Shown piece by piece: positions 34,716-59,236 of a stretch of DNA of 64,000 bases. The stretch lies in the NCBI RefSeq assembly GCF_001421505.1, contig NZ_LMKL01000001.1, positions 62,001-126,000 of the forward strand, read 5' to 3'. The stretch is from Sphingomonas sp. Leaf17 (GTDB lineage Bacteria > Pseudomonadota > Alphaproteobacteria > Sphingomonadales > Sphingomonadaceae). The first letter of the stretch is position 1. Each line of letters starts with the position of its first letter. The translations under genes and the position numbers were made by a program. Under the pieces are notes generated by a model. The model saw only the letters and a program-made list of their open reading frames with translations. It had not been told where the DNA came from and ran no database searches.

Positions 34716-34823
34716 CGCCGCCTGTTCCCCGGCGAAGGCCGGCGCCCAGTTGGGCAGCCGATCGTACTTCATCACCGCCACTGACCCACCTGGACCCCGG
34801 CCTTCGCCGGGGAACAGGCGGCG
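34716..34823. repeat. Long inverted repeat (CCCCGGCGAAGG family)
   Basis: The arms 34716-34742 and 34797-34823 are near-perfect reverse complements of 27 bases (key core TTCCCCGGCGAAGGCCGG), about 54 bases apart. Each core is itself palindromic. Related copies are at 52359-52386 and 58235-58338. It lies between the 51-residue gene and the convergent glycosyltransferase and may also stop transcription. Confidence 0.8.
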
Positions 34824-55145: not shown

Positions 55146-55847
55146 ATGCGCGTACTGCTGATCGAAGACGAGCCGACGACGGCCAAGGCCATCGAACTGA
55201 TGCTGACCAGCGAAGGCTTCAACATCTACACGACCGATCTGGGCGAAGAGGGCCTCGATCTGGGCAAGCTGTATGATTACGACATCATCCTGCTCGACCT
55301 GAACCTGCCCGACATGCACGGATACGACGTGTTGAAGAAGCTGCGCGTCGCGCGCGTCTCCACGCCGGTGCTGATCCTGTCGGGTGTCAACGAAATGGAC
55401 TCGAAGGTGCGTTCGTTCGGCTTCGGCGCCGACGATTATGTGACCAAGCCGTTCCACCGCGAGGAACTGGTCGCGCGCATCCAGGCCGTCGTCCGCCGCT
55501 CCAAGGGCCACAGCCAGTCGGTCATCCGCACCGGCAAGCTGGCGGTCAACCTGGACGCCAAGACGGTAGAGGTCGACGGCGCGCGCGTCCACCTGACCGG
55601 CAAGGAGTATGCGATGCTGGAGCTGCTGAGCCTGCGCAAGGCGACGACGCTGACCAAGGAAATGTTTCTCAACCACCTGTATGGCGGGATGGACGAGCCG
55701 GAACTGAAGATCATCGACGTCTTCATCTGCAAGCTGCGCAAGAAGCTCAGCATGGCCTGCGACGGCGAGAATTATATCGAGACGGTCTGGGGCCGCGGCT
55801 ATGTGCTGCGCGATCCCGACGAGGTGCCGGCCGTACAGGTCGCCTGA
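55146..55847 (+). CDS. ctrA: Cell-cycle response regulator CtrA
   Basis: CtrA is the essential two-component master regulator of cell cycle, motility and polarity genes in alphaproteobacteria. The 233-residue protein starts [20 protein letters not shown], has the phospho-acceptor in [20 protein letters not shown] (D51), [20 protein letters not shown], and an OmpR-type winged helix ([48 protein letters not shown]). ATG 55146 gives the family-standard N-terminus. Flagellar genes such as those in this window are classic CtrA targets. Confidence 0.96.
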
Positions 55848-55882
55848 CGTTTCGCTACCGAGGTCCCGGTCACCCGGGCATC

Positions 55883-55920
55883 AGGTCGCGGTGCCGGGGG
55901 GCGCCGCGACCTTTCTCGTT
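55883..55920 (+). terminator. Rho-independent terminator after ctrA
   Basis: AGGTCGCGG (55883-55891) pairs perfectly with CCGCGACCT (55904-55912) around a GC-rich loop, followed by TTCTCGTTT. It lies 36 bases after the ctrA stop. Confidence 0.7.
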
Positions 55921-55929
55921 TGTGGCGCT

Positions 55930-56008
55930 CCGTCATTGCGAGCCCAGCGAAGCAATCCAGTGCGTCCTGCCGCGACCCTGGATTGCTTCGCTGCGCTCGC
56001 AATGACGG
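55930..56008. repeat. 31-base inverted repeat (CGTCATTGCGAG family)
   Basis: The arms 55930-55960 and 55978-56008 are reverse complements with about two mismatches; the outer ends are CCGTCATTGCGAG and CTCGCAATGACGG. The whole could form a very long hairpin. It is a typical proteobacterial intergenic repeat and contains no gene. Confidence 0.85.
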
Positions 56009-56103
56009 AAGAAGGGTTCAAGCGCAGCCCCGCAATCCCCCCACCACCGTTCGTTTCGAGCGACGTCGAGAAACCGCAAAGCCTAGCGCACGTCAGCCAT
56101 AGC

Positions 56104-56532
56104 TTATCGTAAACGCCAGAGCAAAAGGCTCATACCGATCAGGGCGACGATAACGGCAATGCATCCCCACAACGGTATGGGCTTCGAAAAGCGCTCGCCA
56201 TCCGGATCATGCTCCACCCAGAACGCATTTTGATGCGCTTCCACGGAAGCAACCAAAGTCGCCAAATCGGCATCACCTGACACAGGTTCGCCGACAGACC
56301 CCAGATACGACGACAAGAGCCGTTTAAGGTCGTTCGGCCGGGGGGACATCGCTGATGGCTCAATGACCACCAAATCGCCCCGCGCCACGATGTCATACAT
56401 CTCGCCCGCCGGACCGTAAGCTCTGGGATAAACGTTGTCTTGAATATCGACGGCCTCGAGATAGGTCTCGGCTACCTCAATCGACGGAAAAACAAGAAGG
56501 GGTTCATCCGCTTCCACAAACAGCATCGGCAT
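56104..56532 (-). CDS. Hypothetical protein with C-terminal membrane anchor
   Basis: A 142-residue protein of unknown function. The first ~110 residues look soluble and acidic (LLVFPSIEVAETYLEAVDIQ, YDIVARGDLVVIEPSAMS); the end has one membrane helix (LWGCIAVIVALIGMSLLLW) closed by a basic RLR, as in tail-anchored or C-in/N-out proteins. Base composition is visibly less GC-rich than the neighbours, which suggests later acquisition. It is flanked by the ctrA repeat and the amidohydrolase and shares no operon. Confidence 0.6.
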   Translation of the reverse strand: MPMLFVEADEPLLVFPSIEVAETYLEAVDIQDNVYPRAYGPAGEMYDIVARGDLVVIEPSAMSPRPNDLKRLLSSYLGSVGEPVSGDADLATLVASVEAHQNAFWVEHDPDGERFSKPIPLWGCIAVIVALIGMSLLLWRLR

Positions 56533-56579: not shown

Positions 56580-58358
56580 CTATTTCCTTACCCACGCCTT
56601 CTGCCCGCCGATCCACGTCTCCTCGACCTTCGTCGCGCGCAGGTCGCTGGGTGAGGCCAGCGTCGGATCGCGGTCGACGATGATGAAGTCGGCAAGCTGC
56701 CCCGGGGCCAGCCGCCCGAACTGGTTCTCGGCAAACCCGGCATAGGCACCGCCGGTGGTGAACGCGGCCCAGGCCTGTTCGCGCGTCACGGCTTCCTCCG
56801 GCCGCCAGCCGCCGAACGGCTGACCGGCCGCGTCCATCCGCGTAAAGGCGGCGGCCCAGCCCGCGAACGGGTTGGGATCCTCGACCGGATAGTCCGACCC
56901 GAACGCCAGCGGCACGCCGTTCTTGAGCATCGTCGCCCAGGCATAGGCCCCGGTAAGCCGCACCGGACCCAGCCGCGCCTCGGCCATCGTCCGGTCCGAC
57001 GTGGCATGGGTCGGCTGCATCGACGCGATGGTGCCGTGCTTGGAAAAGCGCGGCAGGTCGGCGGGATCGACGATCTGCGCATGTTCGATCCGCCAGCGCC
57101 GGTCGCCCTTGTAGGTGCCCGACATCTCGTCGATCGCATCCAGCGCCTGTGCGTTCGCCTTGTCGCCGATCGCGTGGACCGCGACCTGATACTTGTCCAT
57201 CGACGCGCGGCTCATCAGGTTGCGGATCACGTCGTCGGACATGAAACCCGCGCCCGACTGGCCCGGCGCATCGCTGTAAGGCGCCTTCAGCCACGCGCCA
57301 CGCGACCCCAGCGCCCCGTCGCTGTACAGCTTCACGCCGACCAGCTTCAGCTTGTCGCCGTACAGCCACGGCGTCGGCCCGGTGCCGCCGATCGTCACCG
57401 TCGTGTCGACACCCGCGCCATAGCTCATGATCCGCACGCGCAGATTGCCCAGATCGCCGATCCGGCGATAGGTCATCCAGTCGTCCAGCGTCGTGCCCAT
57501 GTCAGCGGTGGCGGTGATGCCGTCTTCCAGCAGCATCAGCTGCGCCTTGAGAAACGCGGCGTTGCGGTCCTTGGCCAGCGGTTTCGGCACCGCCGCCTGC
57601 ACCAGGTTCATCGCCGAATCGACGAACACGCCCGACGGCTGCGCGCCAGCCTTCTCGATCCGCCCGCCCGCCGGGGCCACGCTCTTTGCCGTCACGCCGG
57701 CGATCCGCATCGCCTCGCTGTTGGCCCAAGCGGCATGGCCGTCGGCGCGTTGCAGCCAGACCGGCCGGTCCGGGACCGCGCGGTCCAGTTCGGCCGCGGT
57801 CGGGAAGCGCCCCAACCCCCACGCCTCCTGATTCCAGCCGCCGCCCATGATCCATTTCTTGTCCGGGTTCGCCGCCGCATAGGCCGCGATCCGCGCCAGC
57901 GCCTCGTCCAGCGACTTCGCCGCCGACAGGTCGAGTTCCAGCGCGCGGAACCCCAGATCCATGATGTGACCATGCGCATCGACGAAGCCGGGGATCAGCA
58001 CCCGCCCCTTCATGTCCGCCCGCCAGTCCAGTTTGTCCGGCCTTTTGTCCTTTGCGGACAACAGCCTGGTGACCTTGCCATCCAGGCTCATCAGCAGCCC
58101 GGTGAAGCGGACGACCTTCCCGTCCTTGTCCAGCGTGATGCCAGTGACGTTGTCGACCAGCGCATCGGCGAAGGCCGGGGTGGCGAGGAGGGATAGGGCG
58201 ACGAGGGAAGCCGTGATCCGCCAACTCTTTTCAGTTCCCCGGCGAAGGCCGGGGCCTAGGTGGGAACGGGATCGTGACGACAGACGGTCCTTCGTTGGCA
58301 ACGCGGACCCGGTTGGCCCCCGGCCTTCGCCGGGGTGGTAGATGACTGAGGAATCCAC
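56580..58358 (-). CDS. Exported amidohydrolase (YtcJ-like, Amidohydro_3)
   Basis: A metal-dependent hydrolase with the landmarks VLIPGFVDAHGHIMDLGFRA, KKWIMGGGWNQEAWGLGRFP, LVGVKLYSDGALGSRGAWLK, VAVHAIGDKANAQALDAID, WRIEHAQIVDP and VPLAFGSDYPVEDPNPFAG. A hydrophobic signal-peptide core (ITASLVALSLLATPAFA) lies about 47 residues after the nearest usable GTG starts (58358, 58364), and those 47 residues are encoded by a palindromic repeat. No ATG, GTG or TTG lies just before the signal core. The domain is certain; the start is not. Substrate unknown. Confidence 0.8.
   Translation of the reverse strand: MDSSVIYHPGEGRGPTGSALPTKDRLSSRSRSHLGPGLRRGTEKSWRITASLVALSLLATPAFADALVDNVTGITLDKDGKVVRFTGLLMSLDGKVTRLLSAKDKRPDKLDWRADMKGRVLIPGFVDAHGHIMDLGFRALELDLSAAKSLDEALARIAAYAAANPDKKWIMGGGWNQEAWGLGRFPTAAELDRAVPDRPVWLQRADGHAAWANSEAMRIAGVTAKSVAPAGGRIEKAGAQPSGVFVDSAMNLVQAAVPKPLAKDRNAAFLKAQLMLLEDGITATADMGTTLDDWMTYRRIGDLGNLRVRIMSYGAGVDTTVTIGGTGPTPWLYGDKLKLVGVKLYSDGALGSRGAWLKAPYSDAPGQSGAGFMSDDVIRNLMSRASMDKYQVAVHAIGDKANAQALDAIDEMSGTYKGDRRWRIEHAQIVDPADLPRFSKHGTIASMQPTHATSDRTMAEARLGPVRLTGAYAWATMLKNGVPLAFGSDYPVEDPNPFAGWAAAFTRMDAAGQPFGGWRPEEAVTREQAWAAFTTGGAYAGFAENQFGRLAPGQLADFIIVDRDPTLASPSDLRATKVEETWIGGQKAWVRK
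58235..58338. repeat. Palindromic repeat at the amidohydrolase start
   Basis: The left end TTCCCCGGCGAAGGCCGGGG (58235-58254) and the right end CCCCCGGCCTTCGCCGGGG (58317-58335) are reverse complements of the same family as the repeats at 34.7 and 52.4 kb. The element stays open in the reading frame of the amidohydrolase, giving residues like YHPGEGRGPTGSALP before the signal peptide. Confidence 0.8.
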
Positions 58359-58369
58359 ACGCACACCCT

Positions 58370-59236
58370 TCACTTCGGCAACCTCCGCACCAGCGCGCTC
58401 GTATCCTGCCGCGCGCCACCCATCGCCTGCACCTCGGCATAGAAGCCGTCGACCAGCGCCGTCACCGGCAGGTCCGCGCCGATGCGCGCGCCCTCGTCCA
58501 GCGCCAGCCCCAGATCCTTGCGCATCCAGTCCACGGCAAACCCGAAATCGAACTCGTCGCGGGCCATCGTCGGCCAGCGATTGACCATCTGCCAGCTTTG
58601 CGCAGCACCACCCGAAATCGCCTCCAGCACCCGATCCAGGTCGAGGTCGCTCTTCTGCGCGAATCGCAACGCCTCGGCCACGCCCTGCACCACGCCGGCG
58701 ATCGCGATCTGGTTGCACATCTTGGTCTGCTGGCCGGCGCCGGCCGCACCGACATGGACGATGCGCGCGGCATAGGCCTGCATCAGCGGCGTCGCGGCCG
58801 CCATCGCGTCAGCGGACCCGCCGCACATGATGGACAGCGCGCCCTTTTCGGCTCCCGCCTGCCCGCCCGACACCGGCGCGTCGATGACCAGCAGGTCGCG
58901 CGCCGCACCCTCCTCGGCCAGCCGCCGGGCAATGGCCGCCGACACGGTCGTATGGTCCGCGAACAGCGCCCCCGCCCGCATCACCGTGAACGCGCCGTCC
59001 GGCCCCAGCGCCACCGCCGCCAGGTCATCGTCATTGCCGACACAGGTGAACACCGCATCGCATCCCGCCGCTGCCTGTGCCGGGGTATTCGCGACCGCGC
59101 CGCCATATTTGTCCGCCCACGCTGCCGCCTTGGCGCGCGTGCGGTTATAGACGGTGACGTCATGTCCGGCGGCGGCAAGATGCCCCGCCATCGGCGCGCC
59201 CATGACGCCGGTCCCGATGAATGCAAGTTTGGCCAT
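58370..59236 (-). CDS. Beta-hydroxyacid dehydrogenase (HIBADH family)
   Basis: A 288-residue NAD(P)-dependent oxidoreductase of the 3-hydroxyisobutyrate dehydrogenase / tartronate semialdehyde reductase family. [20 protein letters not shown] is the Rossmann start, [20 protein letters not shown] is the substrate-binding signature, and [20 protein letters not shown] carries the catalytic Lys. The exact hydroxyacid is not clear. The amidohydrolase on the same strand starts within 12 bases downstream; threonine ammonia-lyase is divergent. Confidence 0.92.

What the first reader, a model, noticed from the sequence alone, without database searches (positions are those of the whole stretch)
58215..58364. 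Repeat insertion at the start of an exported amidohydrolase creates a new N-terminus
No start codon lies near the signal peptide core (ITASLVALSLLATPAFA). The frame stays open through the palindromic repeat to GTG 58358/58364, with AGGG upstream, adding about 47 repeat-encoded residues. This recalls palindromic elements that insert in-frame in genes, or else the gene lost its start.
Basis: partly seen in the sequence, partly recalled or inferred. Interest (0 to 1): 0.55.

Follow-up and report, generated by a model that had tools for sequence, protein, structure and literature searches.

The report
Repeats inserted in-frame within signal peptides
In Sphingomonas-type bacteria, different families of scattered palindromic DNA repeats have repeatedly landed between the start codon and the export signal of the same enzyme gene, always keeping the reading frame in the alleles examined, so the repeat is probably translated as a disposable leader.

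Summary
The exported amidohydrolase (58373-56580, minus) starts at a GTG overlapping the stop of the upstream dehydrogenase gene (GTGA, 58373-58370), with GGAGG 8 nt before it. A 105-nt palindromic repeat (58234-58338), one of about 59 sites in this genome, lies in frame between that GTG and the signal core. The signal peptide becomes 69 residues; 50 of 52 relatives without a repeat have 17-25. No start codon lies after the repeat.

Of 75 distinct dehydrogenase-amidohydrolase junctions, 19 carry a complete palindromic insert between coupled start and core: seven families, at least nine independent insertions, all in frame. In 17 of 19 no start after the insert leaves a normal-length signal peptide, though 13 have a start inside or before it. 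The long form is most probably translated; the start was kept, not lost.

In-frame palindromic inserts (Rickettsia RPEs, REPs inside ORFs) and repeats at overlapping start/stop codons (MIRUs) are known. Repeated capture by one signal-peptide n-region did not appear in my literature listings. gspJ in the same genome looks like a second case. No expression data were available.

The parts
58370..59236 (-). upstream gene, 288 aa, 3-hydroxyisobutyrate / 2-hydroxy-3-oxopropionate dehydrogenase type
   Evidence: Pfam PF03446 and PF14833; NCBIfam TIGR01505 E 2.7e-65, below its curated cut-off; ORF
58382..58386 (-). Shine-Dalgarno-like GGAGG, 8 nt before the GTG
   Evidence: sequence; similar GGAGG/GGAGA stretches at the same place in many junctions listed
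58371..58373 (-). coupled GTG start, overlapping the upstream TGA (GTGA)
   Evidence: 30 of 31 distinct junctions, and 74 of 75 with the pattern-selected set, have an overlapping in-frame ATG/GTG
56580..58373 (-). exported amidohydrolase, 597 aa in the long form
   Evidence: Pfam Amidohydro_3 4-469 of 472, E 1.3e-94; solved relatives 3igh and 3icj; length checked
58234..58338 (.). family A palindromic element, 105 nt: inverted pair of 18-nt palindromes; outer tetranucleotides GTTC (58234 side) and CCAC (58338 side, read inwards)
58237..58254 (+). palindromic arm CCCCGGCGAAGGCCGGGG
   Evidence: (G000:C1:120237-120254)
58318..58335 (-). palindromic arm, inverted copy
   Evidence: (G000:C1:120318-120335)
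58167..58373 (-). predicted 69-residue signal peptide including the element-encoded stretch; cleavage inferred after LATPAFA, before DALVDN
   Evidence: comparison with 50 uninserted leaders of 17-25 residues; the cleavage site is inferred, no predictor was run
58182..58211 (-). hydrophobic core ASLVALSLLA

Best explanation
A mobile palindromic repeat (REP-dimer-like, family A of this genome) inserted a few codons downstream of the translationally coupled start of an exported amidohydrolase. Ribosomes that finish the upstream dehydrogenase re-initiate at the overlapping GTG (58373), translate the element in frame (about 35 residues) and then the old signal core. The long n-region should be tolerated because signal peptidase removes the whole 69-residue leader, so the mature enzyme is unchanged. 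The start cannot move without losing coupling and its SD, so only in-frame, stop-free insertions survive. Shown: the repeat, the frame, the conserved overlapping start, independent in-frame insertions of other repeat families at the same place, and, in this allele, no start after the repeat. Inferred: re-initiation, export, cleavage, near-neutrality of the insert, and how the repeat moved.
For: (1) An in-frame ATG/GTG overlaps the upstream stop in 30 of 31 distinct junctions not selected for it and in 74 of 75 with the pattern-selected set; the exception (L013) has TAG and then its own GTG. (2) 19 of 75 carry a complete palindromic insert, and 19 of 19 are in frame and stop-free; in the pattern-selected set 57 of 57 junctions are in frame. 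The tree and repeat types give at least 9 insertions (2 A and 2 B forced by well-supported branches, plus C, D, E, F, G); with random phase that would be (1/3)^9, about 5e-5. (3) 17 of 19 inserted alleles have no start after the insert that leaves 17 or more residues (the minimum in 50 uninserted alleles), and 6 of 19 have no such start anywhere but the coupled one (insert ends partly set by hand). (4) The inserts are genome-wide repeats: matches in the host genome, both strands counted apart, the insert itself included and some candidate lists capped: A 97, C 74, E 32, F 92, G 70, B 55 in G211 and 20 in G190. (5) The enzyme body is full length, and over the first 690 nt of the mature part dN is 0.16-0.17 against three uninserted relatives, like an uninserted pair (0.18). 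(6) RNA folding gives the SD/start region the same accessibility in inserted and uninserted alleles (0.36 in 19, 0.37 in 56; this allele 0.50).
Against: No expression or proteomic data. 2 of 19 alleles (L048, L165) have a GTG after the insert that would suffice, and 13 of 19 have a start codon inside or before the insert's end that would leave 17 or more residues (in this allele GTG 58364/58358 and TTG 58301, the latter without an evident SD). In the clade with the most inserted alleles, leader substitutions are 5 synonymous to 5 non-synonymous in each of two sets (p = 0.13 each; pooled p = 0.04), so codon-level constraint on the leader is weak at best. Family D was poorly confirmed as a repeat (itself plus two 31-34-nt matches; inverted-repeat score equal to its best shuffle), and the B query found only 1 match in L169's genome. 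L169's own insert and L048's were not used as genome queries.
Confidence: 0.82

Rival explanations
1. The repeat lies in a 5' untranslated stretch and translation restarts inside it or after it (here TTG 58301), making a shorter leader.
For: Di Nocera et al. (PMC3733652, passages and section 15 read) warn that most N-terminal REPs in P. putida, C. koseri and S. maltophilia may not be coding. A start inside or before the insert's end would leave 17 or more residues in 13 of 19 inserted alleles, and one after it in 2 (L048, L165). In L064 an ATG lies inside a family E repeat.
Against: The frame upstream would then be free, yet 19 of 19 inserts are in frame with the coupled start. 6 of 19 have no alternative start that leaves 17 or more residues. 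The coupled start and its SD are kept.
Confidence: 0.12
2. The insertion inactivated the gene; this is a young pseudogene whose frame is open by chance.
For: 62% of element frames (187 of 300, six frames of 50 copies) are open by chance. No expression data.
Against: Full-length conserved body, no stops, dN like uninserted relatives. The same outcome recurs in at least nine independent insertions, which chance would not keep in frame.
Confidence: 0.05
3. The repeat leader is adaptive: the arm read as Arg-rich residues (LRRG, GRR, GRG) supplies the positive n-region, or the hairpin tunes the ratio of the two proteins.
For: 1-4 Lys/Arg lie in the 12 residues before the core in 19 of 19 inserted alleles. 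The element folds strongly (-60.6 kcal/mol over 120 nt). Some inserts are shared by several related genomes. Pooled leader substitutions lean towards synonymous (10 of 20, p = 0.04).
Against: Many repeat types and lengths serve equally, L169 reads the arm in another frame, and neither substitution set is significant alone.
Confidence: 0.15

Closest known systems
Rickettsia palindromic elements (RPE) and other protein-coding palindromes
   Same: About 100-150 nt palindromic repeats read in frame inside working genes; passages of the review PMC2229807 read
   Different: Here one site in one gene family is hit repeatedly by different repeat families, in a leader expected to be removed, next to a coupled start
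REP dimers, CGTC super-family (Di Nocera et al. 2013, PMC3733652; passages and section 15 read)
   Same: Alphaproteobacterial palindrome pairs; REPs between co-directional genes sit close to the 3' end of the upstream ORF; [quoted passage not shown] Inserts of L060, L165, L169 and L102 have CGTC at one end (by eye on the arms printed)
   Different: Family A in this genome mostly has GTTC or CCAC next to its stems rather than CGTC
Mycobacterial interspersed repetitive units (MIRU)
   Same: Repeats that insert at overlapping start/stop codons; one passage read in PMC12548453, the 1997 original only recalled
   Different: A MIRU brings its own small ORF that becomes coupled to the next gene; here the start stays and the repeat becomes part of the downstream protein's leader
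Yersinia YPAL/RU-2 repeat forming part of a signal peptide (YPO1552)
   Same: A repeat supplies part of a predicted signal peptide (PMC2229807 passage)
   Different: One locus is described there; here many independent insertions ahead of an existing core

Membership tests
REP dimer (inverted pair of short palindromes, dispersed) | two short palindromes in inverted orientation, many dispersed copies | tested here: met
   50 paired copies in the stretches fetched round about 59 sites; 48 of 50 are 91-106 nt
CGTC REP super-family | CGTC tetranucleotide at the head | tested here: not met
   1 of 100 heads of family A is CGTC (GTTC 46, CCAC 19); CGTC lies within 6 nt of the head in 8 of 100
REPIN/RAYT system | Y1_Tnp (PF01797) transposase in the genome | tested here: not met
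   0 matches in 12 of 13 insert-bearing genomes tested, this one included; only G265 has it
RPE-type coding palindrome | in-frame insertion in a conserved gene with the protein made | tested here: inconclusive
   in frame: met; protein production not testable here
MIRU-type coupling-site repeat | repeat at an overlapping start/stop that carries its own coupled ORF | tested here: not met
   location met (GTGA); no separate ORF, the repeat is continuous with the downstream gene
Sec signal peptide | positive n-region, hydrophobic core, AxA cleavage site | tested here: inconclusive
   features present by sequence; no predictor or experiment was run

The most novel reading that the evidence does not exclude
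Genes with a coupled (overlapping) start and a cleaved leader are a general safe harbour for palindromic repeats in Sphingomonas. The repeats prefer to land just past a stop codon, the start cannot move, and the leader is discarded, so repeats are repeatedly converted into protein-coding leaders whose Arg-rich arms become the n-region. gspJ in the same genome, with a 105-nt family A copy in frame between its start (overlapping the gspI stop) and the prepilin motif, would be a second such gene.
Probability: 0.45. Interest if true: 0.7.

Novelty: new variant of a known kind. Interest (0 to 1): 0.56.

Why it matters
Repeats near a gene's 5' end are easily suspected to be annotation errors, as the cited REP survey says. 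Here many relatives carry different repeats at the same junction, and keeping the frame every time is a sequence-only test that the repeat is translated. It suggests a route by which selfish repeats become coding sequence without harming a mature protein, and it gives a ready set of natural alleles for asking how long an n-region the export machinery accepts.

Tried and rejected
Starts at GTG 58364/58358: less likely, since the GTG at 58373 has the SD and is conserved. Lost start: rejected. RAYT-driven REPIN: no Y1_Tnp in this genome. mRNA hairpin hiding the start: no difference in predicted accessibility. Codon-level selection on the leader: inconclusive (pooled p = 0.04). Target-site duplications: not resolved, no close empty/occupied pair for this allele.

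Other family A copies: 12 of 50 overlap an ORF of 120 aa or more with high third-position GC. In the mutase case and in one I recognised by eye as dihydroorotate dehydrogenase (no scan), an ATG after the repeat can start the protein. 5 of the 10 ORFs scanned with Pfam had no family. Apart from gspJ these were not taken as cases.

Literature: searches (8-20 papers listed each). None of the listed titles and abstract beginnings described repeated in-frame repeats in signal peptides at coupled starts; the library lacks most subscription journals.

Selection: 80 of the 134 pattern rows were fetched, chosen by the dehydrogenase-end sequence alone; 12 places already held and most GGCG-type rows were left out. 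57 of the 80 had the amidohydrolase and 23 did not. The pattern requires [AG]TGA, so it conditions on the overlap but not on the frame; the 35 adjacent loci (31 distinct) were not so conditioned. 92 rows reduce to 75 distinct. 4 alleles with partial family C remnants (L015, L022, L183, L216) were not counted as inserts. The other 52 have no recognised repeat: 50 with leaders under 75 nt (17-25 residues; they served as the control), and L180 (28 residues) and L004 (35), left out of that control. Families were assigned by eye from arms and translations. Insert ends came for 12 of the 19 alleles (13 were scored there), by analogy for L167, L186, L198, L200, L209 and L218, and by hand for L175.

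Full report
Checking the observation. On the minus strand the amidohydrolase frame runs open through a palindromic repeat, and no ATG, GTG or TTG lies between the repeat and the signal core. The repeat at 58234-58338 has two perfect 18-nt arms (inverted-repeat score 18, maximum 11 in 60 shuffles, maximum 9 in 50 uninserted alleles). The 18-mer occurs 68 times in the 3.2-Mb genome. The fetched surroundings held 50 paired copies, 48 of them 91-106 nt long.

The start. The upstream gene, a 3-hydroxyisobutyrate/2-hydroxy-3-oxopropionate dehydrogenase type, ends in TGA at 58372-58370, and GTG 58373-58371 overlaps it, with GGAGG at 58386-58382. In relatives with the same gene pair an overlapping in-frame ATG/GTG is found in 30 of 31 distinct junctions, which were not selected for it, and in 74 of 75 when the pattern-selected set is added. 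The relatives come from the same genus in the genome collection.

The comparison. Of 52 distinct alleles without a recognised repeat, 50 have leaders of 17-25 residues, and two (L180, L004) have 28 and 35. Four more carry partial remnants of family C (28-33 residues). Nineteen have a complete palindromic insert between the overlapping start and the core. Family A is in the window allele and L048; B in L055, L060, L169; C in ten alleles of one half of the tree; D in L102; E in L165; F in L175; G in L213. The family letters and assignments are mine. All 19 are in frame and stop-free although insert lengths differ; none of the junctions examined is out of frame. Repeat nature was confirmed in the hosts' own genomes for A (window genome), C, E, F, G and for B in G211 and G190. 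It is weak for D (itself plus two short matches). The B query found one match in L169's genome. L169's insert has a clear inverted repeat (score 24); L102's score of 10 only equals its best shuffle, and L055's 12 exceeds its best by one.

Independence. On a tree of 75 mature-domain sequences inserted and uninserted alleles interleave, with at least 16 changes of state by parsimony. Well-supported branches force two origins each for A and B. With one each for C-G this gives at least nine insertions. The bootstrap had not fully settled, and some changes within C may be losses. Random phase would keep nine insertions in frame with probability about 5e-5.

Could another start explain it? In 17 of 19 inserted alleles no start after the insert leaves a leader of 17 or more residues; the exceptions are L048 and L165. 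Against this, 13 of 19 have an ATG, GTG or TTG inside or before the insert's end that would leave 17 or more residues. Six (L169 and five of family C) have no alternative of that length at all. In the window allele the only start within the insert is TTG 58301. If internal starts were used, the frame between the coupled start and the insert would be free, which the 19 of 19 contradict. Among 59 distinct amidohydrolase loci not found adjacent to the dehydrogenase gene, read by eye, L064 has a family E repeat in its leader with an ATG before it and another inside it. L085 shows a family-G-like stretch in the open frame upstream of a usable ATG. This fits a start fixed by coupling being the reason that inserts become coding.

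Condition of the gene. The protein covers 4-469 of 472 positions of Amidohydro_3, and its relatives include solved structures 3igh and 3icj. Over the first 690 nt of the mature part dN against three uninserted relatives is 0.16-0.17, like an uninserted pair (0.18). In nine family C alleles the mature part has pooled pN/pS 0.07 and the leader 0.49 (pairwise pooling, not independent). Counting single changes gives 5 synonymous and 5 non-synonymous in each of two sets, p = 0.13 each, pooled p = 0.04.

Mechanism proposed. Re-initiation at the overlapping GTG, translation of the repeat, export and removal of the whole leader. Coupling at such overlaps is established in general (PMC12548453, passages read). 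Why here: REPs between co-directional genes tend to lie close to the 3' end of the upstream ORF, including in a sphingomonad, S. wittichi as the paper spells it (PMC3733652, section 15 read; that it is a sphingomonad is recalled). At a GTGA overlap that position is already inside the next gene. How family A moves is open: no Y1_Tnp gene was found in 12 of 13 insert-bearing genomes tested, this one included. That agrees with the paper's statement that CGTC REPs lack a dedicated transposase, although family A itself does not carry the CGTC head.

A second case in the same genome. gspJ (T2SSJ and N_methyl) has its ATG/GTG overlapping the gspI stop. A 105-nt family A copy lies in frame in its leader, followed by three 11-residue repeats and the prepilin motif. 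No start codon lies between the repeat and that motif; one TTG lies inside the repeat. Homologues could not be fetched with the remaining caps, so this remains a lead.

What is known. In-frame palindromes (RPE), REPs inside ORFs, a repeat forming part of a Yersinia signal peptide, and repeats at overlapping start/stop codons (MIRU) are all in print. The REP survey cautions that N-terminal cases may be extragenic. The frame test across relatives speaks against that caution for this gene. I therefore file it as a new variant of a known kind.

Noticed in passing
L149:4357-5214 (G000:C7:115500-121500): gspJ: start overlaps the gspI stop (TGATG/GTGA); an in-frame 105-nt family A copy and a triplicated RRSAEHGFTPV-like unit lie before the prepilin motif.
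   Followed up: partly
L151:1050-1650 minus (G000:C8:40300-43300): FecCD permease: read by eye, the short ORF from an ATG overlapping the preceding stop carries a repeat, a stretch resembling the permease's first membrane segment and a second repeat, and ends; the permease continues in another frame, with a later GTG available.
   Followed up: partly
L064 about 2250-2500: An amidohydrolase not linked to the dehydrogenase has a family E repeat in its leader, with ATGs before and inside the repeat.
   Followed up: partly
58166-58180: The signal-peptide cleavage region (TPAFA) shares the same 15-mer as the repeat arm; relatives without repeats also read TPAFA/TPALA, so probably coincidence.
   Followed up: partly
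34724-34815: Another family A copy in the window.
   Followed up: no
55799-56112: Short ORFs reading MRAQRSNPGSRQDALDCFAGLAMTE and VIASPAKQS look like another palindromic repeat family next to the response-regulator gene.
   Followed up: no
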